Source: a virus. From it: DNA of 64,000 nt. The DNA is taken from the IMG/VR virus record IMGVR_UViG_3300005613_000001, positions 192,279-256,278 of that record; one strand, given 5' to 3'. The first letter of the stretch is position 1, and every line of letters begins with the position of its first letter. The notes under the pieces are model-generated. The model saw only the letters and a program-made list of their open reading frames with translations. It had not been told where the DNA came from and searched no databases. The position numbers and the translations under genes were made by a program. Below are positions 19,407 through 39,261 of this stretch, piece by piece.

Positions 19407-19874
19407 TTCAGGTTCTATAACTTTCGTTTCAATCACTGTTCCATTTCCTAAATCATCTACACTATCAACAAACTGGTCAAGGTTTTTCATTTCAATGAGA
19501 CTCCAATGAGGATCATCTTCAGGGACATTCTCTGGTTTCGTCCAATAAAACTGCTCGAATTTATATTTATAGATTTTTTCAGCTACATCTTCCACCGACA
19601 TGCCGGAATGTAAATCTTCCGCCATTTCTCCACACACCCTCAATGAATCACCTTCAACAGCGCCTCCTAATTTTCTCAGCAAGATAGCACATTCTTGAGC
19701 TTTATACGTATTCACCAGCAAATTAAGAATATCGCGTTTTAAGTTGCCATCTACGAATTCAACAATAGCCGTATACTTAGCCATTGTTTGCCCTCGCTCG
19801 GGCTTATGATTTCTATTCACTTCAAAAAAGTGTTCATGAAAATTAGATTCATCAATTATCAGTTCTTCTGTCAT
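19383..19874 (-). CDS. hypothetical protein, 163 residues
   Basis: I do not recognise this protein. The central part (GNLKRDILNLLVNTYKAQEC) is helical and both ends are acidic. The ATG at 19874 is preferred because a GGGGAG site sits 6 bases upstream; an earlier in-frame start would extend further into the polymerase gene. It overlaps the DNA polymerase end by 23 bases, so it is probably translated with it. Confidence 0.6.
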   Translation of the reverse strand: MTEELIIDESNFHEHFFEVNRNHKPERGQTMAKYTAIVEFVDGNLKRDILNLLVNTYKAQECAILLRKLGGAVEGDSLRVCGEMAEDLHSGMSVEDVAEKIYKYKFEQFYWTKPENVPEDDPHWSLIEMKNLDQFVDSVDDLGNGTVIETKVIEPESEVPEGS

Positions 19875-22707
19875 TATTTTCTCCCCATTCCATAACGAAC
19901 ACACGGCTATCTCTCTCTTTGGGAGGTAGCATATGTCGCTTATGTCTTTGTGGGCTATCTAGTGTATATCCAAATTTAGTAGGCGGTTGAACCCTAATAC
20001 GTAAAAGGTTAGCGCCTGTGAATTCTTCTTCAAATCGTTCCCAATCATTGGCCCAGACAGTTACATATTGTCTTTCTCCATTACCATCTTCAACCCATAT
20101 ATTATAATTAAACCCCTTACCATTTTTCCAATCTCTTTTTTTATGAGATACAACAACCACTTCTACAGGGCCAACAGTAGCACCATCCCGCATTTCTAAC
20201 CGTAATTGAGAAAATGTGCAACCTGTATAATCTGGGCTTTTCTCTAAAGGGTGGTTCCAAATGAATCCCAGATACTTAGTCTCCGCCGATTCAGGGGAAG
20301 TATAGATTTCTTCTAATTCTTTTGGAATATAAGTATCATCACTTGTAGGATCAAATTTATCAAATGTGAATGGATTTTCGTCTGCTTCCGCCTCTTTTTT
20401 AAGATATCCTTTGATGGATCTTTCTCGTTTGCCCCATAAAGTCTTTAATCTTTTCCATTTATTCAGATTCTTCTTTTGAACTTTCCCATATTTAGGACCA
20501 GGAGTGCGACATACTTCCTCAACAATGTCATCTTCATCAAACAATTGTTGCCACAATTCTAAATTAGACTCATCAAACGTTGCCAATTCATCATGGTCAG
20601 CAAGTATTTCTTTCAACTCACTATCATACCTATCCAAAGTTTTCTGGTATCTCTTCCCACGATCTATCCTATTTTTCTCCGCAGCCTTAAAGTTTTCGTA
20701 ATATTTATACAATGTAACGGGATCGCCCTCATCAAAAAGATTAAGACCCAAAAGCGGCTTGATAACTGTGGCATCTGTACCAAAGAATCTTAAGAACTGT
20801 TCAAGAGATGCATAGGGCTGTCCTTGAACAATTTTCTCAGCATTTGACTCACCCACCCCTTTGATATTTGAAAGTCCAAAATAAATCTTATCATCAGGCG
20901 AAGGCTCTTCATTCTCTTGGATGATTGCAAATCTCACATTTGATTTACTAATATTGACTGGCTCTACGGGGATATCATGAATTACCGCCTCAGTTTTATA
21001 CTCTCTAATTTTGTCCTCTTTTGTTTCACAGCTTAGAATACCAGCGTAGAATTCAAGTGGGTAATGGGCTTTTAGCCAAAGAAGTCTTGAGCTTACATAA
21101 GTGTAGGCTACCGCGTGGCTTTTGTTAAATCCATAAGCCGCGAATGCTTCAATTTGATCCCATAGGAATCTAGTATTTGCTGCTGCGGCTGTTTGGTGGA
21201 TATTTTCTTTTGTGAGTTTGGACGGATATTGAAGTTTATACAAATAAGCAACGTATCCCAGAGATTTAGCGTAAGCATTCTCCATACCTTCATAAAATGC
21301 ATAATTCGCCACTTCTCGTTCTAATTCTTCAAATGAATCTTTATGGAGTCCAATCAGAGGCGTAACAACTTCTTTTGCATCTTTCGGGATTTCGGGCTCA
21401 CAATCACGTACTAATATTTTAGCCCCATTTTCAAGAAACATCTCTTTATACTTACCAAAAATCTCAACCTTCTTCTTACTAATAGCCTTTCTCACTTTTT
21501 CAGTGTGACTATCAGGAACCCCACCAATATATTGGAGAACCTTCATAACCTGTTCTTGATAAGCCATTACCCCGTAGGTATTCCCTAGAATACTTTCCAT
21601 AGCTGGGTGTATCGTATATGGTTCTTCTCCCTTCTTTCTTTTTACATACTTCTCCGCCATGCCCATTCCCAACGGACCAGGGCGATATAAGGCTGTGTAC
21701 GCTACCAAATCATCGAAACTTGTAACGCCTCCTTGTTTTACCAATGATCTTATTCCAGGGGAATCAAATTGGAACACGCATTTTAAATCCCCCTTGTTTG
21801 CCATTGCAATCGCTTTGGCATCATCTAGATAAGCCGTATCTGACCAATCCCGTTGTCCAGGTAATGCGCAGATTGAATCCAAACCATGACGAGCTTTCAC
21901 TAATTGACAAATTCTACCAATTTGTTCCAAGTTCGTAATTACAAGAAGATCAAATTTTACCAGACCCAATGGCCCAAGCTCCTGTGCATTCAATCCCTCA
22001 ACAAAGGCAGAGGTAATTTGTTCAGCCCTATCAACCACAAGGGGAACAAAATTACCAAGAGGTTTATTAGAAATAATCAAACCCGCAGCATGCTTGCCCA
22101 TGCTCTTATTGCGATTTGTGAGCTTTCTAGCCGCATTGTAAATATCAGGATTCGCTTCACAAAACTCTGCAAGGGCAGGATTTAATCGCAGTGCGTCTTC
22201 CCAAGTAACCGCATCACCCTCTTCATCTTTATCTACTAAATATTTGGTAATTGCCACCATTTCATCCCGACTCTTACCATAAACCTTAGCAATATCAATA
22301 AGAGAGCTACGCATACCAAACGTATTATAACTGCCGATATTGCAAACCCGTTCTGGACCGAAGGCATTAGGTGCCCATTCCTCCTTCAAATAATCTCGTA
22401 TTGTCTTGTGGAAGTCTACATCTACATCAGGCATATCCCCATCAAATTCAAAAACAGGCTTCTCATTAATATCAAAATCAGGAACCAAATTTAAAAGATA
22501 AGCTACCAAGAGATTGTTTTGATTAACAGGATAACGGATTTTCTTTTCTTGAAACTCATCGTATAAATCAACAAAATATTGAGCTTCATTCTTGGTTTTT
22601 ATAGCCTTAATCTCCTCAGACAATCGCCCCTTGTGTAGATCATCCTCTAAACCCCGCCTCTTTAAAGCGCTAGCACACAAATAAATCAGTCTATCTTGGT
22701 AGTTCAT
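19852..22707 (-). CDS. dnaE: DNA polymerase III alpha, C-terminal catalytic half
   Basis: This 951-residue protein carries the palm, thumb, fingers, helix-hairpin-helix and OB-fold parts of a C-family polymerase. The catalytic Asp pair is in MPDVDVDF (residues 92-99) and the third acid in VKFDLLVITNLEQI. The PHP domain and the GPGRGS loop are absent; they lie in the separate gene at 37876. The first 90 residues look like a degenerate second copy of the segment that ends the N-terminal half. No intein motifs are present at the junction. I choose the ATG at 22707 (MNYQDRL); an upstream ATG at 22713 is possible, and the furthest in-frame ATG would overlap the divergent metacaspase ribosome site. 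Confidence 0.92.
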   Translation of the reverse strand: MNYQDRLIYLCASALKRRGLEDDLHKGRLSEEIKAIKTKNEAQYFVDLYDEFQEKKIRYPVNQNNLLVAYLLNLVPDFDINEKPVFEFDGDMPDVDVDFHKTIRDYLKEEWAPNAFGPERVCNIGSYNTFGMRSSLIDIAKVYGKSRDEMVAITKYLVDKDEEGDAVTWEDALRLNPALAEFCEANPDIYNAARKLTNRNKSMGKHAAGLIISNKPLGNFVPLVVDRAEQITSAFVEGLNAQELGPLGLVKFDLLVITNLEQIGRICQLVKARHGLDSICALPGQRDWSDTAYLDDAKAIAMANKGDLKCVFQFDSPGIRSLVKQGGVTSFDDLVAYTALYRPGPLGMGMAEKYVKRKKGEEPYTIHPAMESILGNTYGVMAYQEQVMKVLQYIGGVPDSHTEKVRKAISKKKVEIFGKYKEMFLENGAKILVRDCEPEIPKDAKEVVTPLIGLHKDSFEELEREVANYAFYEGMENAYAKSLGYVAYLYKLQYPSKLTKENIHQTAAAANTRFLWDQIEAFAAYGFNKSHAVAYTYVSSRLLWLKAHYPLEFYAGILSCETKEDKIREYKTEAVIHDIPVEPVNISKSNVRFAIIQENEEPSPDDKIYFGLSNIKGVGESNAEKIVQGQPYASLEQFLRFFGTDATVIKPLLGLNLFDEGDPVTLYKYYENFKAAEKNRIDRGKRYQKTLDRYDSELKEILADHDELATFDESNLELWQQLFDEDDIVEEVCRTPGPKYGKVQKKNLNKWKRLKTLWGKRERSIKGYLKKEAEADENPFTFDKFDPTSDDTYIPKELEEIYTSPESAETKYLGFIWNHPLEKSPDYTGCTFSQLRLEMRDGATVGPVEVVVVSHKKRDWKNGKGFNYNIWVEDGNGERQYVTVWANDWERFEEEFTGANLLRIRVQPPTKFGYTLDSPQRHKRHMLPPKERDSRVFVMEWGENNDRRTDN

Positions 22708-22730
22708 AAGCATAAATATAATTGATTCTC

Positions 22731-22738
22731 TATAAATC
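22731..22738 (+). promoter_or_regulatory. TATAAATC box upstream of the metacaspase gene
   Basis: TATAAATC lies 15 bases before the metacaspase ATG, in the 46-base divergent gap next to the polymerase start. It resembles the T4-late-like boxes seen before other plus-strand genes. Confidence 0.35.
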
Positions 22739-22753
22739 GTCAAGGGAGACAAT

Positions 22754-23515
22754 ATGAAACGAGCATTATTAGTTGGTATAAATAATTACCAGGAACCAGG
22801 AAGTGATTTGTCAGGCTGTTTAAACGATGTGGCATTCATGCAAGCCCATATTCGCAAATATGGATTTGAAGAAATGCAAACGCTTAAAAACAGCCAAGCA
22901 ACTAAGAACAATATATTGACCGCACTCACCAATTTAGTTGATAGTTCCGAGGCGGGAGATAAAATTCTATATTACCACAGCGGTCACGGAACTCGCGTGG
23001 TAGATGGCTTTGATGGAGATGAAACAGACAGCATGGATGAATGCCTTGTCTCCTACGATCACGATTGGATGGAACCGCTTCGTGACGACCTTATTGCCAA
23101 AGCAATCAGTGGCATCCACCCAAAAGCACGCCTCTATTTAATTATAGACACCTGCCACAGCGGGACTATCACTGATATTATATCAAATGGGAAAATAAAA
23201 TCTATCCCAATGCCACCAGAAATGGAAGAATATGCTTTACGAAAGGAATTAAAAGTCAAAAGAGATGTTCGCCCTAAAACATTAAACCATATTCTTTTAT
23301 CAGGATGCAAACCCCATGAATACAGCTATGAAGCAGTAGTAGATGGGAAAATCAGAGGATTAATGACATGGGGTTTTATTAAAACCACACAGCGAAGAAA
23401 GCCCTGGAATAGAGTGATTTCAGCCGTTAGAAAACAAGTTACCAGACAACAACCAGGACAGCATCCTGTGTTGGCGGGGAAACCTAGACTTAGAAAAGAA
23501 TTAATATTTAAGTAA
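22754..23515 (+). CDS. metacaspase (caspase-family C14 peptidase)
   Basis: The 253-residue protein is a single-domain type, with the caspase p20 catalytic dyad intact: His78 in YYHSGHGT and Cys134 in IDTCHSG. It also shows the early MKRALLVGINNY strand and acidic residues (DGFDGDE, residues 84-90) typical of metacaspase substrate pockets, which cut after Arg or Lys. There is no separate p10 domain beyond about 90 residues. A GGGAG site precedes the ATG. It heads a plus-strand island with a glycosyltransferase and a methyltransferase. Metacaspases drive suicide in bacteria and eukaryotes; on a phage it might process phage proteins, kill the host on cue or counter a defence protease. Confidence 0.93.
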   Translation: MKRALLVGINNYQEPGSDLSGCLNDVAFMQAHIRKYGFEEMQTLKNSQATKNNILTALTNLVDSSEAGDKILYYHSGHGTRVVDGFDGDETDSMDECLVSYDHDWMEPLRDDLIAKAISGIHPKARLYLIIDTCHSGTITDIISNGKIKSIPMPPEMEEYALRKELKVKRDVRPKTLNHILLSGCKPHEYSYEAVVDGKIRGLMTWGFIKTTQRRKPWNRVISAVRKQVTRQQPGQHPVLAGKPRLRKELIFK

Positions 23516-23529
23516 CCCTAAATTAAGTT

Positions 23530-24183
23530 ATGATTGTAGCTACGTATTTAACAGATTCTCACAAACAACTCTACGAGGAGTTTTTTGAACCGTCTGCTAC
23601 TAAAAATGGGTGGGAAATCTACAAAGTGGAAGGGCCGCAGGTTGGGTGCGGGCACTTTGGCGAGCCAGATTGGCCGGAAATGATGAGGCGGAAAGCTCGG
23701 GCAATGTATGATGCTATATGTACTTACCCAAATGAAATCATACTATATGCCGATTGCGACATATATTTTGCCCGAGACTTCAACTGTAAGAAGCTTCTGG
23801 GAGATAACCTCTTGGCAGCCCAGGTAAGCGACAGAAGAGAAATGTGTGCAGGCTTAATGATAATTAATTGCACGCAAGAAATTAAAAGGATGTATAGAAA
23901 AATATATCGCTCTAAGAGATTCTATCAGCCAGGGAATCTAATGAGCGATCAAGATGCATTAAATCACTTTGTAAAAAAAGATAAAATCCCTCGCAAACTC
24001 ATACCTAGACATCTATTTTGGTGTCCAGCTATTGTGAAGCGATGGGAGAGATGGCAAGAAGTGGATTCAATTGAACAAATTCAACCTATACCTAAAACTA
24101 TACTAGCTGCCCATGCTAATTGGTGTAGGGGTCTTGAATTAAAAAAGGAAATTTTAAACTACGTGAAACAATGCATAAATTAA
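23530..24183 (+). CDS. nucleotide-sugar glycosyltransferase (GT-A, GT77/GT8-like)
   Basis: The 217-residue product has a GT-A acidic metal motif (IILYADCDIYFAR), followed by a MCAGLMIINC segment and a late MSDQDALNHFV that matches the donor-acceptor region of GT8/GT77-type enzymes. It is cytoplasmic. It follows the metacaspase by 14 bases and overlaps the methyltransferase by 13 bases. The sugar and acceptor are unknown. Confidence 0.75.
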   Translation: MIVATYLTDSHKQLYEEFFEPSATKNGWEIYKVEGPQVGCGHFGEPDWPEMMRRKARAMYDAICTYPNEIILYADCDIYFARDFNCKKLLGDNLLAAQVSDRREMCAGLMIINCTQEIKRMYRKIYRSKRFYQPGNLMSDQDALNHFVKKDKIPRKLIPRHLFWCPAIVKRWERWQEVDSIEQIQPIPKTILAAHANWCRGLELKKEILNYVKQCIN

Positions 24184-24764
24184 AACACACTCACATGAGA
24201 ACTAAAAGGAATTCGCCAGGACTCCATAAGCTCTGTAATTCGATCCCAGAAAAACACAGAAATCTTCTTGTAGAAATTGGAAGTTTCTACGGAGAATCCA
24301 CAGCAATCTTTGCAGGGCACTTTAAACAAGTAATCGCAATTGATCCTTGGGATTTCAAAGGCTGCAACGAATTAAATAAGGGTTCAAAGAATAGCAGCGA
24401 GAAGCTAATCACAGGAAAAATGGCTGAGGAGCGATTTGACGAAAATGTAGGCAAAATAGAAAATATTAAAAAAATCAAAGCATACGACCATGATGTAGTT
24501 GACTCTTTTGAAGACAACTCCATCGATTGCATCTATATTGACAGCATACACACTTTTGAAGCGTGTGGGCTCACGATATTAAGATGGTGGCCCAAAGTTA
24601 AAAACTATGGATACATAGCGGGACACGATTTTACGCCAATGTGGCCGGGTATCCAAAAAGTGGTAAAAATAATAGCACAAATGACAAAACAAAGAATGCG
24701 CCGATTTAAAGGGGATTGTAGTTGGCTACTACAAAAAAGAGTTTTCACCCCGCATCAAGTATAA
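24171..24764 (+). CDS. class I SAM-dependent methyltransferase
   Basis: The 197-residue product has the SAM-binding motif I (LLVEIGSFYGESTAIFA), motif II acidic end (VIAIDPWD) and a catalytic-loop pattern (CIYIDSIHTFEACGLTILRW) of the Methyltransf_24 type, often used on sugars. The start could be 24171 or the in-frame ATG at 24195 (MRTKRNSP). It is the last gene of the metacaspase island and overlaps the convergent receiver-like gene by 20 bases. Confidence 0.8.
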   Translation: MHKLKHTHMRTKRNSPGLHKLCNSIPEKHRNLLVEIGSFYGESTAIFAGHFKQVIAIDPWDFKGCNELNKGSKNSSEKLITGKMAEERFDENVGKIENIKKIKAYDHDVVDSFEDNSIDCIYIDSIHTFEACGLTILRWWPKVKNYGYIAGHDFTPMWPGIQKVVKIIAQMTKQRMRRFKGDCSWLLQKRVFTPHQV

Positions 24765-25146
24765 CTTCTAACAAATTCTTATCTCCCACCTTCTCATAAA
24801 CCAAACTTGTAATTGCCATTCTCTGAACCTCATATCCCACCTTTGCTAAATCTTCAGTCATGTATTGTGCAGCGACACTATTGCAAGAATGTACCACCAC
24901 CTTTTTAACATCGGGCTTATTTACCGCCATCCATCTAACAACTTCGCTACCTGTATTCGGATGAGCAGGATCAACATAGACCTCCCCACCTAAATCATGG
25001 TCCAAAAAAACAATGTCCCACGGTTCCTCAGCCGCCTCTAATACTTCAATACATTCAGAGGCGGTTGAGGTAACCGTGGCGTATGGCGCAAAGCTGCGGA
25101 ATAACCTTGTTCTCTCAGGCGAATCATCAAGCCATAACACATTCAT
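24745..25146 (-). CDS. receiver-domain-like protein
   Basis: The 133-residue product resembles a response-regulator receiver: acidic pair in VLWLDDSPERTRL, phosphoacceptor-like Asp in DIVFLDHDLGG and a final VVVHSCNSV strand. The spacing and the HD in LDHDLGG are like the 'cyclic-phosphate processing receiver' family found next to RNA ligase or repair genes. No histidine kinase or output domain is attached. It abuts the PEP-CTERM gene with a 4-base overlap. Confidence 0.65.
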   Translation of the reverse strand: MNVLWLDDSPERTRLFRSFAPYATVTSTASECIEVLEAAEEPWDIVFLDHDLGGEVYVDPAHPNTGSEVVRWMAVNKPDVKKVVVHSCNSVAAQYMTEDLAKVGYEVQRMAITSLVYEKVGDKNLLEVILDAG

Positions 25147-25952
25147 TCTTTTCTATTCCTTCTCTTAAACAACATCATACCAAAAAATGCCGTCAAAAGC
25201 AAAGCGATCTGGGATGGTTCCGGCACTCTACCCATCAAGTTATCATTTCCACATTCCATTGTGAAGTGCGTATAAAACTCATCGCCCGCTGACGCCAAGT
25301 ATGGCCCATCATCCATGAATCCCAAATCAATACCTCTAATTCGATAGTGCCAAGTATGGTGACCATCTGCGCCTGTGAAGCCTGTCTCGGCATCAGTTAA
25401 ATTACTCTCGTACAAGAAAGCCCCTTCATCTATTGCCTGTCCACCGGAAACATAGCGGACAGGATTCGCTATATCCATCTCCGGTCGTGTTGCTAAACTT
25501 AGAATTGAATCGGAACCAATTTCATAAACTGTGTATTGGTTGCTATCAAAATTCAATCTAATGGCATAATTATAACCAAAGATGTTTGGCATTGTGCCAC
25601 TACCTGTTCCCGCCGCTGCATCACCATAAATTGGTTTCTGACGAGCGATAAAAATGTCGCCCGAATCGTACCCCTCATAGCCCGTCGCAAAGTTAAAACC
25701 CCCAACCATACCAAGTTGTCGCCCTTCTAGGAAGACTGACTCTAAATCATACTTTTGTGTGCCGTGACTATCAGGTTCTACTTCCTGATCTTCGTGAATC
25801 CCCTCTCTGGCATCATCGCCAGCCCACCAGGGATCGTGGGGGCGGGCACCATAGGCAATTGAGTCATCAAAGATAGTAATGTCAGTGGCTTCGCCAAGTG
25901 CGTAGCCCGAGGCCATTGCCCAACACACCACAAAAATTGTAAAGAACCTCAT
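25143..25952 (-). CDS. PEP-CTERM sorted extracellular protein
   Basis: The 269-residue product begins with a Sec signal peptide (residues 1-20, cleavage near GYA-LGEA). It ends in a PEP-CTERM tripartite signal: VPEPS, hydrophobic helix QIALLLTAFFGMMLF, basic tail KRRNRK. Exosortase in the host would cut at the PEP motif and tether the protein to the outer surface. The body is beta-rich and Asp/Gly-rich. I use the ATG at 25952 after a GGAGG site. PEP-CTERM proteins are a bacterial surface feature and not usual phage cargo. Confidence 0.85.
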   Translation of the reverse strand: MRFFTIFVVCWAMASGYALGEATDITIFDDSIAYGARPHDPWWAGDDAREGIHEDQEVEPDSHGTQKYDLESVFLEGRQLGMVGGFNFATGYEGYDSGDIFIARQKPIYGDAAAGTGSGTMPNIFGYNYAIRLNFDSNQYTVYEIGSDSILSLATRPEMDIANPVRYVSGGQAIDEGAFLYESNLTDAETGFTGADGHHTWHYRIRGIDLGFMDDGPYLASAGDEFYTHFTMECGNDNLMGRVPEPSQIALLLTAFFGMMLFKRRNRKE

Positions 25953-26023
25953 CACACACCTCCATTCGAGTAGTGGAAGAAAAAACGATCCATTTTTACA
26001 TCATACCACAAATAGGCTGACTG

Positions 26024-26878
26024 TTAAGCAAATTTCTTGCGAAGCCACCATCTTTTGAGTTGCTGCAATGGATGGCGATTACCCCCCCATAGAAAGCCCC
26101 TCTTTAACATGTGGCGGTAGGCGTCAAACTGAAAATAATAGGGGGCTTGCGACACTTCACCCCGCCCCAAAAGAATTTTAAGAGCCTCAGCCGAAGCGAC
26201 TCCGCTACACAACTGACAAGCTAGAGAAGCTGAGGGGCCTTTGCCGGTATCAGGTTCTACCTTATCAAAATCTAAATAGGTAATATGAGTATGCGAAGGT
26301 GCAAGTCCTACAGCAAATGCCACAAGTTTATCCATATGATCCATTGAATCATTTAAATCAAAGTAATCATCAAATGACATACCTGTTGGGTGGAATGAAA
26401 GCCAGGCTGTACTAAAGCCCACGGGGCCTGCTGTGACTGCCCAGATGCCCCTTTCACGCGCGGTGGCGAACAACAAGCGTCTAGCGTCAATAGAAAAGAA
26501 ATCAATACCATCAACAAATAAATCGGCATCATCAAGGAATCTAGAAACGTTGTCTTGCGAGATGGGTTCATGAAAAATGCGAAAATCAATATTAGGATTG
26601 ATAGCCAGGGCCATATCAACCATTGATTCAACTTTACTATGACCTATCGTAGCTGTTGTTGCTCCACACTGACGATTGAAATTAGCAACTTCAAATGTAT
26701 CAGGATCAGCAATTGTAAATTTGCCAACCCCCAGGCGAGTCAAGGTAAGCAAATGAATACCCCCGACACCACCCATGCCAGCAATTGCTACCCGACTATT
26801 GCGAACAACACTCTGTTCATCTGAGGCGATCAAGCCCTGATTGCGGGCAAAAGCCTCTTCGTAAGACCAAGAATCCAT
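26024..26878 (-). CDS. ThiF/E1-like adenylyltransferase
   Basis: The 284-residue enzyme has a nucleotide-binding loop (AIAGMGGVGGIHLLTLTRLG), an acidic NxxR-type site (FEVANFNRQCG) and a lid-like CQLCSGV zinc/Cys pair. It belongs to the ThiF-MoeB-E1 superfamily that activates a C-terminal glycine of a ubiquitin-like protein as an adenylate. The catalytic Cys of E1 is not obvious. I prefer the ATG at 26878 to the upstream TTG. No ubiquitin-like, E2 or JAB gene is adjacent. It overlaps the end of the 123-residue membrane protein by 49 bases. Confidence 0.88.
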   Translation of the reverse strand: MDSWSYEEAFARNQGLIASDEQSVVRNSRVAIAGMGGVGGIHLLTLTRLGVGKFTIADPDTFEVANFNRQCGATTATIGHSKVESMVDMALAINPNIDFRIFHEPISQDNVSRFLDDADLFVDGIDFFSIDARRLLFATARERGIWAVTAGPVGFSTAWLSFHPTGMSFDDYFDLNDSMDHMDKLVAFAVGLAPSHTHITYLDFDKVEPDTGKGPSASLACQLCSGVASAEALKILLGRGEVSQAPYYFQFDAYRHMLKRGFLWGGNRHPLQQLKRWWLRKKFA

Positions 26879-27620: not shown

Positions 27621-27653
27621 TGTGTACAGATATCTACCGTTATTAACGGCATT

Positions 27654-28727: not shown

Positions 28728-28823
28728 TGTACCACGCTCTCCTTACGGTACATTTTTGACCTCCCACAATAAGTTGCCAATCCATTGATGTTAATTCCAT
28801 TGTAAGAGATGTAGTGGGTTATG

Positions 28824-29706: not shown

Positions 29707-29763
29707 GACAAACCTAAACTAATAAGAATAAATATTTTTAAAGGATTTTATGCAAGGAGTGCC

Positions 29764-31229: not shown

Positions 31230-31241
31230 TTTAGAATCCCT

Positions 31242-31394: not shown

Positions 31395-31498
31395 AATTTA
31401 TCCTTTCTTGCTTTCGGTACAATTCCTCTAATATAGATAGTAACAAAAGAGGCGAATTTTGACAACATTTGTTGTTATATATTACAATGCTTATGGCA

Positions 31499-32062: not shown

Positions 32063-32109
32063 ATATTTACCCAGCCATTACATTTTAATTTTATATATGG
32101 CTGGATAAT

Positions 32110-32140
32110 AAAAAATCCACCAATAATTTTGGTGGATTTT
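32110..32140 (-). terminator. rho-independent terminator after tmRNA
   Basis: On the minus strand AAATCCACCA and TGGTGGATTT form a 10-bp stem with a 7-base loop, followed by a run of T. It begins right after the tmRNA 3' end and before the HNH gene, so tmRNA is probably transcribed as its own unit or ends the upstream operon. Confidence 0.85.
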
Positions 32141-32142
32141 AG

Positions 32143-32494
32143 TGGAGAGGATGGGACTCGAACCCATGTCCACGACGAACTCACACAGGGGCATCTACGT
32201 GTGTAGTTTATTGTTCATTTTCTCGCATCATTACACTACAACAAACAAAAGTGTAAATCAACCAGCAACAAATCTTACTTGAGATCGTCGTTGCATGAAC
32301 TCAAGAGTAGCCAACTTTTATGGCGAGACTTCAGACTCCGTTAGCTAAGGATTCTTTGTCTCGGGCTGCTTACGCAGCCATTTGAAGCGGAGCTTCGACA
32401 AATAAAGTTTTAATCGACTTTTAAAGTGGCCTGTCGATCAACCACTACACGCCACCCAAGCGCTTGTTTGTGTGTCGAAACCAAATTCCTCCCC
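32143..32494 (-). ncRNA. ssrA: transfer-messenger RNA (tmRNA)
   Basis: The 5' end GGGGAGG pairs with CCTCTCC at the 3' end to make a 7-bp acceptor stem with one G-U. The tRNA-like domain follows the model: TTTGGTTTCGACA near the 5' end, and a T arm ATGGG-TTCGAGT-CCCAT before the 3' acceptor strand. The tag reading frame ends ...EAPLQMAA with its UAA in the loop of a GGCUGC/GCAGCC hairpin at 32370. The length is about 352 bases. The genomic end after the discriminator reads CTA, not CCA, so CCA must be added or is altered. The 5' 57 bases overlap the end of the coding sequence at 32438. The resume codon is unresolved. Confidence 0.93.
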
Positions 32495-32698
32495 TTTTTT
32501 AAGGTTCTTTATGTATGCTTCTGTTTCCTCCTTTGCTGTGCCCATTTTAGCCAGCCAAACCTTCAACCGATCCAGCACTGTAGGATCACGGTCATATTCA
32601 GCCGCTATAAACATACGCAAGATAACAAATATTTGATTTGAAGTATAGTCTGAACTGTCTTCAAAATCAAATATTTCTTTGGAAGTAGGATGTATCAC
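32438..32698 (-). CDS. hypothetical protein, 86 residues, 3' end within tmRNA
   Basis: I do not recognise it. The protein is helical and basic-acidic mixed (DRLKVWLAKMGTAKEETEAY). It starts with GTG overlapping the stop of the 80-residue gene. Its last 18 codons and stop are the same bases as the tmRNA 5' acceptor and D-like region, so the C terminus is dictated by the RNA. Either the gene is real and shares the sequence, or tmRNA landed in it. Confidence 0.55.
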   Translation of the reverse strand: MIHPTSKEIFDFEDSSDYTSNQIFVILRMFIAAEYDRDPTVLDRLKVWLAKMGTAKEETEAYIKNLKKGEEFGFDTQTSAWVACSG

Positions 32699-32937
32699 AG
32701 CAACTTTCTTGCTCTCGCAGACCTTGCTTTCAAATCTTTTACTGCATCTCCCGGTACAATTTGAGGTTTTGGGGCGGCTCCACCTTCCTGTAATACCAAC
32801 CCACCATTTGCATCCTTACCTACATGGAATGCATGCCCGCCAGGGCCTATTTGTCTGACATTTTCTACGCCCATTTCTTTGAGCCAATCTACAACTTGTT
32901 GGTCTGTTTTACCAGCAATATCATCCATCTTTTCCAT
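32695..32937 (-). CDS. hypothetical protein, 80 residues
   Basis: I do not recognise it. It contains a DQQVVDWLKEMGVENVRQIG helix-hairpin-like segment, then a Gly-rich turn and a basic end. It overlaps the 105-residue gene by 17 bases. Confidence 0.55.
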   Translation of the reverse strand: MEKMDDIAGKTDQQVVDWLKEMGVENVRQIGPGGHAFHVGKDANGGLVLQEGGAAPKPQIVPGDAVKDLKARSARARKLL

Positions 32938-33238
32938 CTTTTTTCTCCTCTGATTCGACCAATTTTCTTAATTCATCAAAAGCCTCAGAATCAGGAAATT
33001 TTCCCAATCTCATTGTCGGGTGACTTCCTACACCATTAAACATATCAGCAAACAACTGCCAATTACCGTCTTCTACTTCTCGTCCCCCCGAGCTATTCCC
33101 CCCTTTATCACACCACTCCCAATAAAGGCGGTGACCAAATCCACCATCAACTCTTTTTTCTTCAACAAGAATACGCCAACGGGGCAGCAAACAATGCTTC
33201 AATAATTGTTCATCGGTCATTTTATTACTCCCATACAA
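32921..33238 (-). CDS. hypothetical protein, 105 residues
   Basis: I do not recognise it. It has several Trp and a WEWCDKGGNSSGGREVEDG segment, with an acidic-basic C terminus (LVESEEKKDGKDG). It overlaps genes on both sides by 14-17 bases. Confidence 0.5.
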   Translation of the reverse strand: MYGSNKMTDEQLLKHCLLPRWRILVEEKRVDGGFGHRLYWEWCDKGGNSSGGREVEDGNWQLFADMFNGVGSHPTMRLGKFPDSEAFDELRKLVESEEKKDGKDG

Positions 33239-33449
33239 AATCTACTTCAGTGGAAAACTCATCACAGTGAGAACAATAACCACCACACACACCACCTTGA
33301 CCGCGATGTAGAGTTTTAATCCCAGAACAATCTCTTCCACACTTCTCACAAACCACCATGAATTTAACATACTCAAGAGATGAATTTTGCACTTCATCTA
33401 TAATTCTGGCTTTGCCTTTTACTAATCTAGCAGCCATTTTAATCACCAT
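33225..33449 (-). CDS. zinc-ribbon protein, 74 residues
   Basis: Two Cys pairs (CEKCGRDC and CSHCDEF) and a central GGYCSHC form a zinc ribbon. The start may be the first ATG or the one four codons later (MAARLVKG). It overlaps the next gene by 14 bases. Function unknown. Confidence 0.6.
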   Translation of the reverse strand: MVIKMAARLVKGKARIIDEVQNSSLEYVKFMVVCEKCGRDCSGIKTLHRGQGGVCGGYCSHCDEFSTEVDFVWE

Positions 33450-33509
33450 TGGGCTAGGAAGAAATGAGCCACTTCACCGGCTGAGTGGTGGTCATCCGGG
33501 TTATCATCA

Positions 33510-33647
33510 TCATTTGTCACTTGCCAAATAGTTGCCGTTCGTTGCCGTTACAATAGGGTCAATATCTGTTTTTCTCTCCCATGCTTCAATAGGCGCAAGG
33601 ACATTGAAAACATTAAAGAGTTTCAGTTGTTTTACTTCTTGAAACTG
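33510..33647 (-). pseudogene. gene remnant, open 45-codon frame without a start
   Basis: A 45-codon open frame encodes a protein-like stretch (VLAPIEAWERKTDIDPIV, then TNGNYLASDK and stop) but has no ATG, GTG or TTG at a plausible position. Its upstream side runs into the GC-rich structured stretch, so it looks like the end of a gene whose beginning was lost or moved. Confidence 0.4.
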
Positions 33648-33675
33648 TCATGACGACCTACAGCTTGTAAAAATT

Positions 33676-33820
33676 GCGGGCTCTTTTTCAGAACCGTTAT
33701 TTGAACCCGCTGATAGGAGGGCAGGCGGCGCGATTGAGTTTGCTTTGCCTACCGCCAGCAGTGCCGCTAAGGACGGTTCTAGCCTACGGAATACTGGCTC
33801 CAGTTATGGCGTGCTTCCGC
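33676..33820. other. GC-rich structured non-coding stretch
   Basis: The 33450-33855 gap has no gene other than the remnant. Its right part is GC-rich and can fold: GCGGG (33676) pairs with CCCGC (33706), and AGAACCGT (33690) inside that helix pairs with ACGGTTCT (33773) outside it, which makes a pseudoknot. CGGAA (33787) pairs with TTCCG (33815). The pairing suggests a structured RNA or intron remnant on either strand; the family is unknown. Confidence 0.4.
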
Positions 33821-33855
33821 ACAGACCACACCCACGACAACGACAAGCGTTGCTC

Positions 33856-34323
33856 CTACTTTTCCCTAAGTTTTCTGTAATGTTTCCAGCGATGATCGAA
33901 CTTATCCCGTAATCGCAAATATTCACGGTATTCGGGATCATCTGTCAATTTTTTGAGGCGTTTCTTTACTTCAGCAGGAGTACGACTATTTCCTTTACTG
34001 AAGTCTGCTTTTTCTATTACCCGCCTCAATTTGACTTCAACTTCAACTAAGCCACACCCTTTATGTCCTGGTACGGCTTCGGGATCGGGATAAACGATGG
34101 TGCCTAATCTATCGCCACCAATTTCGTAATCCCACTCTACTTGCTCCATAAACCCTACTACAATGCCATCCTTGTCCCCCCATAGTGGGGTGTCAAATGT
34201 GCCGTCTTCGTGCCTCATGATTGAGCGGGTCGTCCCCGCGATTGCTAGTGGTCCTATCCTAATCATACCATAGAAAAAAGGAACGTCAACTGGCTTGGGA
34301 AATTGTTCATAACAATAATACAT
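33856..34323 (-). CDS. hypothetical gamma-glutamyl-cyclotransferase-like protein, 155 residues
   Basis: The N-terminal part (PFFYGMIRIGPLAIAG ... DGTFDTPLWGDKDGIVVGFM) resembles the small YxxLxxG beta-barrel of gamma-glutamyl-cyclotransferase-like proteins, with a long charged C-terminal helix. The call is weak. I choose the ATG at 34323; there is no clear Shine-Dalgarno for it and a later start (MIRIGPL) is possible. The start faces the PspC gene across 25 bases. Confidence 0.4.
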   Translation of the reverse strand: MYYCYEQFPKPVDVPFFYGMIRIGPLAIAGTTRSIMRHEDGTFDTPLWGDKDGIVVGFMEQVEWDYEIGGDRLGTIVYPDPEAVPGHKGCGLVEVEVKLRRVIEKADFSKGNSRTPAEVKKRLKKLTDDPEYREYLRLRDKFDHRWKHYRKLREK

Positions 34324-34326
34324 AAC

Positions 34327-34345
34327 AGTATCACAGGAGGATACT
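34327..34345 (+). promoter_or_regulatory. hairpin sequestering the PspC ribosome site
   Basis: AGTATC (34327-34332) and GATACT (34340-34345) can pair around the loop ACAGGAG, which holds most of the Shine-Dalgarno ACAGGAGG of the PspC gene. The ATG follows 4 bases later. Pairing would limit translation; it could also be an operator. It is symmetric, so it might serve the divergent gene too. Confidence 0.4.
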
Positions 34346-34348
34346 ATT

Positions 34349-34747
34349 ATGTATAGAGACAAAGAAAATGCCATTATCGGCGGTGTTTGTGCTGGATTAG
34401 CGAATGCAGTTGGAATGCCAATCTTAGTTATGAGATTGATCTTCCTTATTGCGATTTTGTGGGTGGGCGTTTCCATTTGGATTTACCCAATTTTATGGTT
34501 ACTAATGCCCGTAGCAAAAGACAAAAAGGAATTCCTTGATGGTTTAAAGCAATTGAAACTTGACAAGGAAAACAGAGTGCTTGCCGGTGTGTGCGCCGGA
34601 ATTGCCAACATGATGGGGCTACCGCATATTGTAGTCCGGTTGGCGTGGATAATCTTCAGCTTGTGGTTCGGTTTCGGTATTATTGCTTATTTAATCATGT
34701 GGATGCTAATGGCTTGTAATACAAAAGACGAAAAAGCAGAAGAATAA
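34349..34747 (+). CDS. tandem PspC-domain membrane protein
   Basis: The 132-residue protein holds two PspC domains in tandem, each with IxGVCAGLA/I ... VMRLIFLI...WVGVSI hydrophobic helices (about residues 10-52 and 77-122). PspC proteins sense or stabilise the inner membrane and activate the phage-shock response. Carried on a phage, it may protect the host membrane during infection. It opens a plus-strand island. Confidence 0.9.
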   Translation: MYRDKENAIIGGVCAGLANAVGMPILVMRLIFLIAILWVGVSIWIYPILWLLMPVAKDKKEFLDGLKQLKLDKENRVLAGVCAGIANMMGLPHIVVRLAWIIFSLWFGFGIIAYLIMWMLMACNTKDEKAEE

Positions 34748-34752
34748 TTAAA

Positions 34753-34760
34753 TATAAAGG
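34753..34760 (+). promoter_or_regulatory. TATAAAGG box
   Basis: TATAAAGG lies 38 bases before the ATG at 34799 and resembles the late-promoter-like boxes before other plus-strand genes. Confidence 0.3.
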
Positions 34761-34798
34761 CTAGATAAAGTAATAAAACAAGCTAGAGGTATCAGATT

Positions 34799-35818
34799 AT
34801 GGCTTATGCATCATTTCAAGATTATTTAGAAGTTAAGAAAAATTGCAAATGCAAAATGGCTGTTGAGAAACCGCCCGTTGAAGAAGTGCCCGATTATCAC
34901 GGTGACACTAATAAAGCAGGTGAAGAGGGTAAAGAAAAACGAAAAGGCATCAAAAATCACCAAGTTCAAGAACGTGCCCGCACGTTTCAAGAATACCTAA
35001 ATGCTAAAGGTAGCATGCAGGATAAGCCTGGAAGTGGCATGGGTGATGACCATTTCACCGATGAAAAAGCACCCCCAAAGGGTTCAATTCCTCCAGCCAA
35101 TGTAAGTGGCGGAAAGCCTCACCCTTATAAAGCCGCATCTATGTCCACTGGGGACAAAGCCTTTGGCGATATGGGTGTTGATCCACCGTATGAGCCAAAA
35201 ACTGATACCTCTAAGCTTGAAACTAAGCCTACTATGCCCAAAAGTGAAAAGGGTGTTCCACAAGCCGAATCATTGATTTCCAACAAAAGTCTAATTTCTG
35301 TTACCCAACTAATGTCGGAACTAAATGATAAAGTTGTGGATTATGATATCCCCTCCATTACCGTTGGTAGGGACAAATTTCATCCGAACCCCTTGGAAGC
35401 CGTAGAATATGTCGCATATCTCGTAGGTGAAAATAGAAACCTACTCGATGTATTCCTCAGAATTCTTAAAAAAAGAGGCGTTAAATTAATGGAAGCCATC
35501 GCCCCGCCTATCGGATTTGAAGGCGATGAAACCGAAGCTGAAGTTCTTAAAAAAAAGAAACCCGACTTAGGGGACTTTGAGGACGAAGAAGAAGAAACGC
35601 CAGCAGAAGATGAATTTGGGGCGGAAGATGAGGAAGATCCTGACGATGGGTTTGGAGCAGGTGACGAAGAAGATGAATTTGGTGGCGAAGAAGAAGCCCC
35701 CGAAGATGAAATGGGACCGCCCGAGATGGAACGCCCAAGGCGACATAAAAATCGCAAAAGAGGGTTCGGACCAGAAATAGAAGGCCCCGGAATGGGTGCT
35801 GGACCAGAAATGGCGTAA
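34799..35818 (+). CDS. acidic phage protein with two CTS-like motifs
   Basis: The 339-residue product starts with MAYASFQDYLEVKK and repeats a similar motif, RTFQEYLNAK, at about residue 60. Both resemble T4 capsid-targeting sequences. The middle has a helical domain (LISVTQLMSELNDKVVDYDI ... LDVFLRILKKRG) and the last 90 residues are Glu/Asp-rich, ending in Pro/Gly/Met. The composition fits a head-core, scaffold or internal protein. Unrecognised. Confidence 0.6.
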   Translation: MAYASFQDYLEVKKNCKCKMAVEKPPVEEVPDYHGDTNKAGEEGKEKRKGIKNHQVQERARTFQEYLNAKGSMQDKPGSGMGDDHFTDEKAPPKGSIPPANVSGGKPHPYKAASMSTGDKAFGDMGVDPPYEPKTDTSKLETKPTMPKSEKGVPQAESLISNKSLISVTQLMSELNDKVVDYDIPSITVGRDKFHPNPLEAVEYVAYLVGENRNLLDVFLRILKKRGVKLMEAIAPPIGFEGDETEAEVLKKKKPDLGDFEDEEEETPAEDEFGAEDEEDPDDGFGAGDEEDEFGGEEEAPEDEMGPPEMERPRRHKNRKRGFGPEIEGPGMGAGPEMA

Positions 35819-35835
35819 CATTGCTTAATTAGGAT

Positions 35836-36966
35836 ATGAAGGTACTAGTATCAGGCTGCTTCGATCTAATCCACAGCGGCCATATCCAATTTCTTAAAGA
35901 AGCCGCTGAATACGGCGATCTATATGTCTCCATTGGATCAGATCAAACAATCCAAGAACTAAAAAATAGAACTCCCATCTATAACGAGCAAGAACGCCTC
36001 TTTATTATGGAGTCTATCAAATATATTAAAAAAGCTTTTATCGCTCAGGGGTCTGGGACACTAGATTTCTTAAACGAATTAAAACAATTAAAGCCAGGGG
36101 CGTTTGTGGTCAATTCTGATGGTCATTCCCAAGAAAAGGAAGACCTGTGCAAAGAGCTAAAAATTAAATATATTGTCCTCAATCGGTCCCCCTACAAAAC
36201 TCTTCCCGCTCGCAGTACATCAAAATTGCTTGGCGAAATAGAAATGCCCTATCGTATTGATTTGGCAGGAGGCTGGCTGGATCAACCGTGGGTTTCCAAT
36301 ATGGGGCACGGGCCTGTTATCACCATCTCATTAGAAGCCTCACATATTTTCTTTAGAAGAAGCGGAATGGCTACCTCCACCAGAGAAAAAGCCATTAAAT
36401 TATGGGGCTCTGGGATTCCTTATGGTGACTACGAAGAAAATGCAAAACTCCTATTTTCTTATGATAATTTCCCCGATAAAGAGTTTGTTTCTGGTTCTCA
36501 AGATACATTGGGAATTGTCATGCCAGGAGTTAATAAATTAGACTATTCCGGTAAGTATTGGCCGGAAGCTATAGAGTCTATTGTAGATGATGACACTGCG
36601 CGTTGGTTAGAAGACCACATTCGCTTAGTCCCCTTATATCCAAGACCAAAAGACTATTCTGTGCTGTCCAATACCAATATTAAAGAAGAATATGTTAGAG
36701 GTTTAGCCTTCAATGCCCACAAAGTTTGGAAAGCAATTGAATTAAAACATGCCAGCATGTTAGGGCTACACGTAGAAAAGTGTTTCGGTGCCCAAGTGGC
36801 TATGTTCCCCAATATGATAACTCATAGAATAGCCAAAATAATCAAAAAATACAGAAATAAAATATTGGGAGTTAAAATATCAGGGGCGGGTGGGGGCGGA
36901 TATCTAATCTTCATCACCGATCAAGATATAGAAAATTCAATTAAAATTAAAGTGAGAACTCAATAA
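35836..36966 (+). CDS. nucleotidyltransferase-GHMP kinase fusion
   Basis: Residues 1-135 are a cytidylyltransferase-like domain with HSGH (FDLIHSGHIQF) and an ISxxR-like end. Residues about 140-376 are a GHMP kinase: substrate-region EMPYRIDLAGGWLDQP and motif 3 VKISGAGGGGYLIF. The order is activation enzyme then kinase. It resembles the pair that makes GDP- or ADP-heptose (HddA/HddC, HldE), so it may phosphorylate and activate a heptose or fucose. It is 17 bases from the acidic protein and overlaps a convergent gene by 7 bases. Confidence 0.82.
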   Translation: MKVLVSGCFDLIHSGHIQFLKEAAEYGDLYVSIGSDQTIQELKNRTPIYNEQERLFIMESIKYIKKAFIAQGSGTLDFLNELKQLKPGAFVVNSDGHSQEKEDLCKELKIKYIVLNRSPYKTLPARSTSKLLGEIEMPYRIDLAGGWLDQPWVSNMGHGPVITISLEASHIFFRRSGMATSTREKAIKLWGSGIPYGDYEENAKLLFSYDNFPDKEFVSGSQDTLGIVMPGVNKLDYSGKYWPEAIESIVDDDTARWLEDHIRLVPLYPRPKDYSVLSNTNIKEEYVRGLAFNAHKVWKAIELKHASMLGLHVEKCFGAQVAMFPNMITHRIAKIIKKYRNKILGVKISGAGGGGYLIFITDQDIENSIKIKVRTQ

Positions 36967-37412
36967 ATCACTGCCGTAGCGTAAGAAAGCTCTACTTTAC
37001 ACCCATAATCCATCAACTTAAGCTGCCACAGTCTAGCCACATCTAAACTATCAAAATCCCTAATCCGATCTCTTCCTTGTACGGTCCAATACTGAACATG
37101 GAAATCAAACCCTACAGATGACATTTGCGTTTCAAACCCCATCTCCTTCATTATATGATTGAAAGACCTTGCATTAGCCTCAAAATCAGTATGTGGGTCA
37201 CGCTCAAACCGCCTCGTTATTTTATATCCATTAGTATTGTATTTTAATGTATATGTTGGTGCGGGAGGTTCTGGTTTAGCTTCAGGTAGAGATGCTTTTG
37301 GACATGGAACGGGAACAACGGGACGTGTAGGTTTTTCGCGGCGGGAACATGAAATTAATATTATGGGAACACCTATAACAATTGACAGTATTAAAATATT
37401 AATGAATCGCAT
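36960..37412 (-). CDS. lipoprotein, paralogue of the adjacent gene
   Basis: The 150-residue product has a signal peptide and lipobox (PIILISCSRR, Cys near residue 22). The mature part has a repeat-like region (YWTVQGRDRIRDF ... LWQLKLMDYGCKV) that matches the neighbour (37399) in order and sequence. I prefer the ATG at 37412 with a GAGG site 7 bases upstream. Likely outer-membrane or periplasmic. Confidence 0.7.
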   Translation of the reverse strand: MRFINILILSIVIGVPIILISCSRREKPTRPVVPVPCPKASLPEAKPEPPAPTYTLKYNTNGYKITRRFERDPHTDFEANARSFNHIMKEMGFETQMSSVGFDFHVQYWTVQGRDRIRDFDSLDVARLWQLKLMDYGCKVELSYATAVIY

Positions 37413-37872
37413 TTTCAACCTCACAACCATATTCTGTTAATTTAAGCATCCACAAATCTGCTGTTTCTTTGTCGGTGAATTCCCGCCTCTGTTTATTTGC
37501 CCAATATACTACAGCCCACATATGTATTGTGGTTCCATCATGAAAAAGATTAGCCATATCATTAGGGTTATAGGGCAATTCGTAAGTCAAAGGATATGGC
37601 GGCTTGTTTTTGTGAATTTCTGTTTTAAAACCAAAATCATGCAACACTTTACAGAAATTATCAGCACTGCCTTGGGTATCAAATCTCTTAATCTTCTTCT
37701 CACAACTGTATTCTAAAACAACCTTAGGTTTAACAGTAGGAGAAATAGAATTAAAAGGAGGCGTCGGTTGTAAATCCATTACGCGGGCGGTACGCGGGAA
37801 TAGCCAAACCCCTAGAATAACACCTAAAAGGGTTCCAACAATCGCACAAAGAACTAAACGTTTATCCACCAT
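37399..37872 (-). CDS. membrane-anchored paralogue of the adjacent lipoprotein
   Basis: The 157-residue product has one N-terminal hydrophobic helix (about residues 8-25) but no lipobox. The C-terminal region (YWANKQRREF ... LWMLKLTEYGCEV) matches the lipoprotein at 36960. The two look like tandem duplicates sent to different places in the envelope. It starts 3 bases after the polymerase N-half. Confidence 0.7.
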   Translation of the reverse strand: MVDKRLVLCAIVGTLLGVILGVWLFPRTARVMDLQPTPPFNSISPTVKPKVVLEYSCEKKIKRFDTQGSADNFCKVLHDFGFKTEIHKNKPPYPLTYELPYNPNDMANLFHDGTTIHMWAVVYWANKQRREFTDKETADLWMLKLTEYGCEVENAIH

Positions 37873-37875
37873 ACT

Positions 37876-39261
37876 TTATATATCCTCAATGGGCACAGGA
37901 TCAATATTATTAAACCTTAACTTCATTGAGCGACCGCCCCTTGATTCACTAAGGAAACGCGAGAAAAGAAGATCGTGCTTAATGGGATCAACGTCGGTAA
38001 TACCCAAACAATAACAGGTCAATGCCCCTACGGCTGATCCTCTTCCGGGGCCAACTGCCTCTGATCCATCTCCCCAGCCTAGTAATCTAGGGAAGGCAAT
38101 TCTAGCCTCATCTGTCATCTGTTTTTGCATTAAGAAGTAAGTAGAGAATCCTTTTCGGCATATCAATTCATATTCTTCCTTAATCCGATTTAAATACCTA
38201 TTTTCCGTGGGCAACCTTCTAGCTTTAACTCCCTCTATGATTACCTCTTTGAACATTTCATCAGCATCAGGAAACTGGGGAAGTTTAATACTACGGTCTA
38301 ATTGTACGCCTTTTGCTTTCTCGCATATTACAACCGTATTTTGTTTAGCTTGTCTAAAGAGATCGTCAGGGATTACTTGGCTATACTTCTTGAGCCACAT
38401 TTGGTTGAGTTCATCTTCTGACTTCATCCAAAGGTTAGTATCCTGTAGTTCAAAGAAATCCGCATCAGGATTGGCTCTCATTTTCTCTTCAATTTCAGCC
38501 ATTGTTGTGTTGGTTTGAAGCATCAACATCAATCGCTGCATCAAAGCATCTTCTTCACGGCAATAGTGACAATCATTTGTGACAACGAGAGGAATGCCAT
38601 ACCTGTCGTGTGCTTTAATAATAAATTTATCAAAAGGTGTTTGTTTGTCAAAATCCAAAAGCATCATTTCCAAGTAAAAATTATCTGGAAACATCTGCTG
38701 ATATTTTTCAACCATTGCAAATCCAGCTTCATCCCCACCCTCGCAATGAAAGCCATCAAATGCTTGTCCTATCTCGCCATTATAACAGCCTGACGAGAAT
38801 ACGATTCCCTCTTTGTATTTCAGTAATTGCTCATGATTCACACGGGGTCGCTTTGGACGACCGCCCTGACCATTAATCCAAGCCCAAGAACTTAAATTAA
38901 CCAGATTTGCGTATCCAATCTCATTATAAGCTATAGCTAATAAATGGAAGCTTTTACGAAGATAAAGCTTTTCATTCTCAGTGAGGTTAGATTGGAAATC
39001 AGCATACTCATCCTTATTCCTTACACCGGGTTGCATTGGGTTGAGATATAATTCACATGCGAAAACAGGATGAATGTCGTGTTTTTCACAAGTCTTAATC
39101 TGACGGGGGATAACCCCCATTTGCCCGTGGTCCGATATACAAAGAAACTTCTGATTTACCTGCTGAGAGTATTCTGCGTACTCTTCAGGGTGAGCGTAGC
39201 CATCAAGAAGTGAGAAGTGGCTATGGCGGTGAAGGTGCTCAAAACCCACAATATCAATCAC
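37876..39261 (-). CDS. dnaE: DNA polymerase III alpha, N-terminal PHP half
   Basis: The 461-residue product contains the PHP domain (FEHLHRHSHFSLLDG, FLCISDHGQMGV, VTNDCHYC) and the first part of the palm. It ends with the GPGRGSAVGALTCYCLGITD loop and LLFSRFLSESR, exactly where the catalytic Asp motif (PDxDxDF) would follow in an intact DnaE. After that come 20 residues with no resemblance to the family or to an intein. The catalytic half lies about 15 kb away at 19852. The start is GTG at 39261, with an AAAGGA site 9 bases upstream. The halves must assemble without intein splicing. Confidence 0.92.
   Translation of the reverse strand: MIDIVGFEHLHRHSHFSLLDGYAHPEEYAEYSQQVNQKFLCISDHGQMGVIPRQIKTCEKHDIHPVFACELYLNPMQPGVRNKDEYADFQSNLTENEKLYLRKSFHLLAIAYNEIGYANLVNLSSWAWINGQGGRPKRPRVNHEQLLKYKEGIVFSSGCYNGEIGQAFDGFHCEGGDEAGFAMVEKYQQMFPDNFYLEMMLLDFDKQTPFDKFIIKAHDRYGIPLVVTNDCHYCREEDALMQRLMLMLQTNTTMAEIEEKMRANPDADFFELQDTNLWMKSEDELNQMWLKKYSQVIPDDLFRQAKQNTVVICEKAKGVQLDRSIKLPQFPDADEMFKEVIIEGVKARRLPTENRYLNRIKEEYELICRKGFSTYFLMQKQMTDEARIAFPRLLGWGDGSEAVGPGRGSAVGALTCYCLGITDVDPIKHDLLFSRFLSESRGGRSMKLRFNNIDPVPIEDI

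What the first reader, a model, noticed from the sequence alone, without database searches (positions are those of the whole stretch)
19852..39261. DNA polymerase III alpha split in two genes 15 kb apart, with a duplicated junction segment and no intein
The PHP half ends right after GPGRGS...LLFSRFL, where intact DnaE continues with the catalytic PDxDxDF. The catalytic half begins with about 90 residues that mirror the same region (EEIKAIKTKN.AQYFVDLYDEF ~ EEYELICRKG.STYFLMQKQM; NNLLVAYLLNLVPDFDINE ~ GALTCYCLGITDVDPIKHD) but have lost the GPGRGS loop. So the two proteins overlap in fold, which suggests the split arose by partial duplication and may allow strand-swapped assembly. No intein or splicing motif is visible at either end.
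Basis: partly seen in the sequence, partly recalled or inferred. Interest (0 to 1): 0.75.

Follow-up and report, generated by a model that had tools for sequence, protein, structure and literature searches.

The report
Two-gene phage replicase, duplicated palm
A giant phage and dozens of its relatives encode their bacterial-type replicase (DNA polymerase III alpha) as two separate proteins that each carry a copy of the same piece of the active-site domain; a second group of large phages keeps both copies in one protein, so the gene broke between two copies that may already have been there, and no intein rejoins them.

Summary
The 527-kb virus record encodes one DnaE-type Pol III alpha in two genes 15 kb apart. 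The PHP protein carries the palm subdomain with GPGRGS (copy A). The catalytic protein starts with about 90 residues homologous to that subdomain but without the GS loop (copy B): profile comparison 94.9%, E 4e-8, score 46 against at most 19 for shuffles. It then runs into PDVDVDF.

This is a family trait. 57 further close-family IMG/VR contigs (not all independent) have both halves as separate genes on one strand, PHP first, 0.3-14 kb apart. Copy B keeps R28, E32, N62 and N65 in 35/35 sequences; copy A keeps G404, R407, G408 and S409 in 33/33. Inteins occur inside halves of some relatives, never at the break.

Twenty contigs of another phage group encode PHP-A-B-catalytic core as one chain, so copy B does not need the split; the break falls between the copies. 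Four intact single-copy relatives sit inside or beside the split clade.

Most likely mechanism (inferred): a non-covalent two-protein polymerase in which copy A supplies the GS loop and the catalytic protein the three aspartates. The complex was not modelled. A split PHP-less Pol III is already published (PMC7824862); this is a new variant.

The parts
37876..39261 (-). PHP half of DNA polymerase III alpha (461 aa): PHP domain, palm copy A with GPGRGS, conserved tail
38272..39261 (-). PHP domain and linker; metal-site residues D20, H45, E70, H106, C159, D230, H232 are invariant in 33 sequences, HLHRH motif present (predicted active proofreading nuclease)
   Evidence: criterion from PMC12926913
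37942..38259 (-). palm copy A (residues 335-440) with GPGRGS; G404, R407, G408, S409 in 33/33 sequences
37879..37941 (-). conserved C-terminal tail (within SESRGGRSMKLRFNNIDP...); stands where intact DnaE has the catalytic PDxDxDF strand, without the aspartates; low pLDDT alone
19852..22707 (-). catalytic half of DNA polymerase III alpha (951 aa from ATG 22707; ATG 22713 also possible)
22435..22707 (-). palm copy B (residues 1-91), no GS loop; R28, E32, N62, N65 in 35/35 sequences
22411..22431 (-). catalytic strand PDVDVDF (D94, D96 = E. coli D401, D403 by alignment and general knowledge), 35/35
21949..21951 (-). third catalytic aspartate D253 in KFD (equivalent to E. coli D555), 35/35
21424..21921 (-). 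fingers domain (PF17657)
20731..20973 (-). HHH_6 helix-hairpin-helix DNA-binding motif

Best explanation
The two genes encode the two polypeptides of one C-family (DnaE-type) replicase. Shown: the break lies between two copies of the palm's nucleotide-binding subdomain; copy A, with the GS loop, ends the PHP protein, and copy B, without it, begins the catalytic protein just before the PDxDxD strand; this layout, without an intein at the break, is conserved in a large phage family, and the same order PHP-A-B-catalytic core exists as one chain in another phage group. Inferred: copy B is a module inserted between copy A and the catalytic strand, the gene broke in the linker between A and B, and the enzyme works as a non-covalent heterodimer in which copy A's GPGRGS loop completes the active site whose three aspartates (D94, D96, D253) sit in the catalytic protein, with proofreading by the PHP protein. 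Copy B would be a conserved docking or place-holding module. The direction of the history (split first and re-fused later, or the reverse) is not settled.
For: Duplication significant and specific. Reciprocal conservation: GS loop invariant only in the PHP protein, Asp triad invariant only in the catalytic protein, which is hard to explain unless they meet. 55 close-family contigs with both halves on one strand, PHP first, plus G016 and G017. Single-chain tandem-palm DnaE in 20 contigs, GS-to-DxD distance about 147 instead of about 37 residues; copy B profile matches the second copy there better than the first (4e-7 against 1e-3; copy B to copy B prob 96, E 1e-9). Intact relatives join copy A directly to PDxDxDF, showing the functional topology. 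No intein at the break; inteins only inside halves of relatives. The isolated catalytic-half model has low confidence around both aspartate strands (residues 89-95 and 253-255 below 50).
Against: No complex was modelled and nothing biochemical exists. Copy B is conserved and covalently attached to the catalytic strand, so it could itself fill the palm position. In the single-chain family, copies A and B are not significantly similar to each other directly (score 18.9 against 18.3 for shuffles); the link runs through the window family. Deep tree branches are weak. A few long contigs show only one half (G015 catalytic only in 430 kb, G023 PHP only in 106 kb).
Confidence: 0.64

Rival explanations
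1. Two separate enzymes: the catalytic protein is a self-sufficient PHP-less polymerase whose palm is built with copy B (N62/N65 loop replacing GPGRGS), and the PHP protein is a free proofreading nuclease with a vestigial palm used only for docking.
For: Copy B has its own invariant residues R28, E32, N62, N65 and sits in cis before the catalytic strand; AlphaFold folds its helices with high confidence.
Against: The GS loop stays invariant in a protein without catalytic aspartates, which a vestigial palm would not need; intact relatives use copy A, not B.
Confidence: 0.22
2. One reading: the split arose in one step by partial duplication of the junction, and the duplicate segments swap strands on assembly.
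For: Duplicated segment at the junction is real; in intact relatives the tmRNA lies upstream of the fused gene but between the halves in split genomes, as a duplicative relocation of the 5' part would give.
Against: Tandem A-B palms exist in unsplit genes and share the N-x-x-N-L feature and profile similarity with copy B of the window family.
Confidence: 0.12
3. The two products are rejoined (split intein or other trans-splicing) into one chain.
For: Inteins are common inside these genes in relatives and cyanobacterial DnaE is split by an intein (cited in PMC3919608).
Against: No intein domain at or near either end, the only one in the record is at 430.9 kb; a joined product would carry both palm copies and the PHP tail; conserved tail and copy B are not intein-like.
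Confidence: 0.02

Closest known systems
Minimal split Pol III alpha of group 2.2 jumbo phages (Iyer et al. 2021, PMC7824862)
   Same: Pol III alpha catalytic module in two distant genes, broken between the NTP-binding and the Mg-binding parts; jumbo phages
   Different: That version is described as lacking the other Pol III domains and accompanies a family B polymerase; here PHP, fingers and HHH are present, no family B polymerase was found in the record, and the palm subdomain is duplicated
Cyanobacterial split DnaE (split intein)
   Same: DnaE in two genes
   Different: No intein here; the break lies before the first catalytic aspartates and the halves overlap in fold
Intact DnaE of huge phage LR756511.1 and IMG/VR contigs L179, L203, L205
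   Same: Closest full-length relatives of both halves (PHP part 54.6%, catalytic part about 37% identity for LR756511.1)
   Different: One chain, single palm copy (A) joined directly to PDVDVDF
Tandem-palm single-chain DnaE (L222, L231, L248-L267)
   Same: Same order PHP, copy A with RGS, RFLNPGRG tail, copy B without GS loop, PDVDTDID
   Different: One gene; distant lineage; not found described in the papers searched

Membership tests
C-family DNA polymerase (DnaE-type Pol III alpha) | PHP domain with metal-site residues | tested here: met
   PF02811 6.6e-32; D20, H45, E70, H106, C159, D230, H232 33/33
C-family DNA polymerase (DnaE-type Pol III alpha) | Palm with GS motif and three catalytic aspartates | tested here: met
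   Met only across the two proteins: GPGRGS in one, D94, D96, D253 in the other
C-family DNA polymerase (DnaE-type Pol III alpha) | Fingers and helix-hairpin-helix domains | tested here: met
   PF17657 4.3e-42, PF14579 2.7e-11; Foldseek top hits Pol III alpha 7pu7, 2hpi
C-family DNA polymerase (DnaE-type Pol III alpha) | Polymerase activity | not testable with these tools
   needs protein
Split-intein DnaE | N- and C-intein halves at the break | tested here: not met
   Only Intein_splicing hit in the record is at 430.9 kb; ends read directly
Minimal split Pol III alpha of group 2.2 jumbo phages | Break between NTP-binding and Mg-binding parts, distant genes | tested here: met
   compared with text of PMC7824862
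Minimal split Pol III alpha of group 2.2 jumbo phages | No PHP or other Pol III domains, with a family B polymerase in the genome | tested here: not met
   PHP and HHH present; no DNA_pol_B match in the record

The most novel reading that the evidence does not exclude
A distinct kind of replicase with two palm nucleotide-binding subdomains, in cis in one phage group and in trans in another, in which copy B (N-x-x-N loop) holds or caps the catalytic palm until copy A from the PHP protein takes its place, so that assembly with the proofreading subunit switches polymerisation on.
Probability: 0.18. Interest if true: 0.78.

Novelty: new variant of a known kind. Interest (0 to 1): 0.63.

Why it matters
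Replicative polymerases are rarely broken inside the active-site domain. Here the nucleotide-binding loop and the catalytic aspartates of one active site are predicted to sit on two proteins throughout a widespread phage family, with natural fused and tandem single-chain versions as built-in controls. That makes it testable how a replicase active site can be shared between subunits, whether proofreading and polymerisation are coupled by assembly, and how a duplicated subdomain can precede or permit gene fission.

Tried and rejected
Split intein or other splicing at the break: rejected. Host-like intact DnaE elsewhere in the record: none. Direct BLASTP of the two halves: no signal, hence profiles. 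Copy B alone against PDB sequences: no DnaE hit; with the full catalytic profile the alignment starts at profile position 21 on E. coli residue 315. Re-fusion of the four intact genes (intact nested in split): favoured by some trees but one clade of split genes is not rejected (p 0.099, 0.32, 0.164), so left open. Common origin of all copy-B bearers: not rejected (p 0.367); the test (p 2.9e-9) left the window row out by mistake and is void. An index slip was corrected (three of 14 stems are still undercounted there; one search shows them whole). Complex modelling was not possible with the structure tool; Foldseek output gives no residue map, so the placement of copy B in the palm could not be read from it. 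Tandem-palm genes in 84,980 bacterial and archaeal genomes: two hits only.

Full report
What is there. The window is bases 192,279-256,278 of a 527,112-base virus record. On the minus strand the PHP gene (37876-39261, 461 aa) lies upstream of the catalytic gene (19852 to ATG 22707), about 15 kb away. Pfam assigns PHP and the first third of DNA_pol3_alpha to the first, and DNA_pol3_alpha from position 21 on, fingers and HHH_6 to the second. PHROGs phrog_405, a 1190-position DNA polymerase family, is covered by the two proteins in turn: positions 44-439 by the first and 441-1052 by the second. No third DNA_pol3_alpha place exists in the record.

The duplicated segment. Alignments of 35 catalytic halves (A5) and 33 PHP halves (A6) were compared as profiles. 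Residues 1-92 of the catalytic half match residues 335-461 of the PHP half with probability 94.9, E 4.4e-8, score 46.2. Column-shuffled profiles reach at most 19.3, other regions of either protein at most 12.3. The aligned stretch is RL..E..EI......YF..L...(gap where GPGRGS stands) NNLLV.YLLGI against R...EE..LI..KGF.SYF......GPGRGS..G.LV.Y.LGIT. AlphaFold gives helices 3-17, 23-38, 42-55 and 67-71 in the catalytic half and 333-347, 354-369, 373-394 and 414-419 in the PHP half.

Not decay. In copy A, G404, R407, G408 and S409 are identical in 33/33; in copy B, R28, E32, N62 and N65 are identical in 35/35, and D94, D96, D98, K251 and D253 likewise. The GS loop is therefore kept in the protein without aspartates, and the aspartates in the protein without a GS loop. 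The PHP half also has a conserved tail after LLFSRFL, S-x-[AS]-R-G-G-[KR], at the place where intact DnaE has its aspartate strand.

A family trait. Scans of IMG/VR gave 55 contigs of the window's family with both halves on separate ORFs, always on the same strand with PHP first, gap 0.33-14.5 kb by stop-to-stop ORFs, plus two more with 10.6 kb gaps. Several contigs are near-copies from different samples, so these are not independent events. A divergent pair (G026) has a gap of about 16.5 kb. Many halves in relatives contain inteins (for example L007, L008, L031, L075, L160) but none lies at the break. The INPHARED collection shows no such pair among its listed hits; its best hit, LR756511.1, is intact, and records close to the window's own genome may be left out by the tool.

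Single-chain tandem palms. L222 and L231-L235, and 20 contigs found with L231 (which include those loci), encode DnaE with PHP, copy A (GIRGSGVGSL...LMFERFLNPGRGTQYKI), then copy B (KEIWVLENQGLASYICDL...NDSNLWTAHILGI) and then LPDVDTDID. The distance from the GS motif to the aspartates is 146-148 residues in all 20, against about 37 in ordinary DnaE. The window's copy B profile matches the second copy (iE 4e-7) better than the first (1e-3), and, unlike most matches to ordinary palms, the match runs through the loopless N-x-x-N-L part. Copy B to copy B gives probability 96.5, E 1e-9. A distant split pair, G010 (PHP 440 aa, catalytic 1223 aa with inteins, PF07733 matched from position 16 in the catalytic half), groups with these single-chain genes in both trees, outside the window clade (SH-aLRT 90 and 92; the placement is open). 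So the same break may have happened twice.

History. Both halves have the same four closest intact relatives (LR756511.1, L179, L203, L205), which carry copy A only and join it directly to PDxDxDF. Thus the two genes come from one DnaE lineage. Some trees place the intact genes inside the split clade (97/95 support for excluding the window pair), which would mean re-fusion with loss of copy B, but a single clade of split genes is not rejected. A tmRNA gene lies between the halves in the window (32140-32494 minus) and in seven relatives, and just upstream of the fused gene in all four intact ones, so the catalytic locus has kept its place and the PHP part has moved or stayed apart.

Mechanism. 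From established knowledge of Pol III alpha, the GS loop binds the incoming nucleotide's phosphates and the three aspartates the metals. With these on different proteins, the simplest reading is an active site completed in trans, with the PHP protein also supplying proofreading; its metal-site residues are complete by the criterion of PMC12926913. The isolated catalytic model is least confident around the aspartate strands, which fits but does not prove this. What copy B does is not known; its conservation and its presence in cis and in trans suggest docking or place-holding. No complex model could be run, and I mark the assembly as inferred.

Comparison. Iyer et al. 2021 (PMC7824862) described a PHP-less minimal Pol III alpha in two distant genes in T4-like jumbo phages, so a break at this boundary has a precedent. 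The present enzyme differs by full domain content, absence of a family B polymerase in the record (a PolA-like ORF is at 286,869-287,525 of the record) and the duplicated palm. I found no description of the tandem palm in the papers searched.

Noticed in passing
Relatives' PHP genes: L127 8861-9130, L147, L157, L159, L134, L146, L101, L111, L130, L109, L120, L090, L108, L112, L182, L210: Right after the HLHLH codons of the PHP metal site these genes have a 5-8 nt insert beginning with a stop (TAG, once TGA) that mostly shifts the frame, preceded by a perfect or near-perfect 12-14 bp hairpin (loop 14 nt) pairing the start-codon region with the HLHLH codons. 16 of 18 genes with such short inserts have it; 33 uninterrupted genes on the whole do not (mean fold energy -20.7 against -10.1, p 4.7e-7), and paired bases change on both sides between phages. 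The layout recalls T4 gene 60 bypassing; not present in the window's own gene. This may deserve its own study.
   Followed up: partly
L094, L099, L131, L132, L135, L161 near the PHP gene start: Inserts of 40-54 nt with a strong GC hairpin at the same place, between HLH[TS]D and FSLLDG, frame-breaking or stop-containing.
   Followed up: partly
L115 8831-9056, L136 8764-8991, L160 (similar size): Small ORF-less group I introns (Rfam RF00028, 90.7 and 102.4 bits in L115 and L136) interrupt the PHP gene at the same motif.
   Followed up: partly
window 32140-32494 (-): tmRNA gene (RF00023, 127 bits) that ARAGORN did not report; tmRNA also lies between the halves in L092, L099, L110, L115, L131, L135, L136 and upstream of the fused dnaE in L071, L179, L203, L205.
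   Followed up: partly
L007, L008, L031, L075, L160: Several relatives carry inteins inside one or both halves (PHP half near residue 231 or at the GS loop; catalytic half near residues 395-436), some with LAGLIDADG domains.
   Followed up: partly
L006 10376-10378: In contig 3300031885_000006 the catalytic half has an in-frame TAA at codon ~127 in an otherwise intact gene.
   Followed up: no
L224, L225, L229, L230, L236: Other, distant phage DnaEs are split into two adjacent or overlapping ORFs at the same place, just before the PDxDxDF strand, without an evident copy B: the boundary looks like a recurrent break point.
   Followed up: partly
L272 (JAFDWS010000002.1, 1.36 Mb contig of an Armatimonadetes MAG): Tandem-palm DnaE 56% identical to the phage family on a contig filed as bacterial; could be a phage region or misbinning.
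   Followed up: no
window 19855-22707 (-), residues about 434-510: The window and L003 share a 70-80-residue insertion absent from most relatives, at the site where other relatives carry inteins.
   Followed up: no
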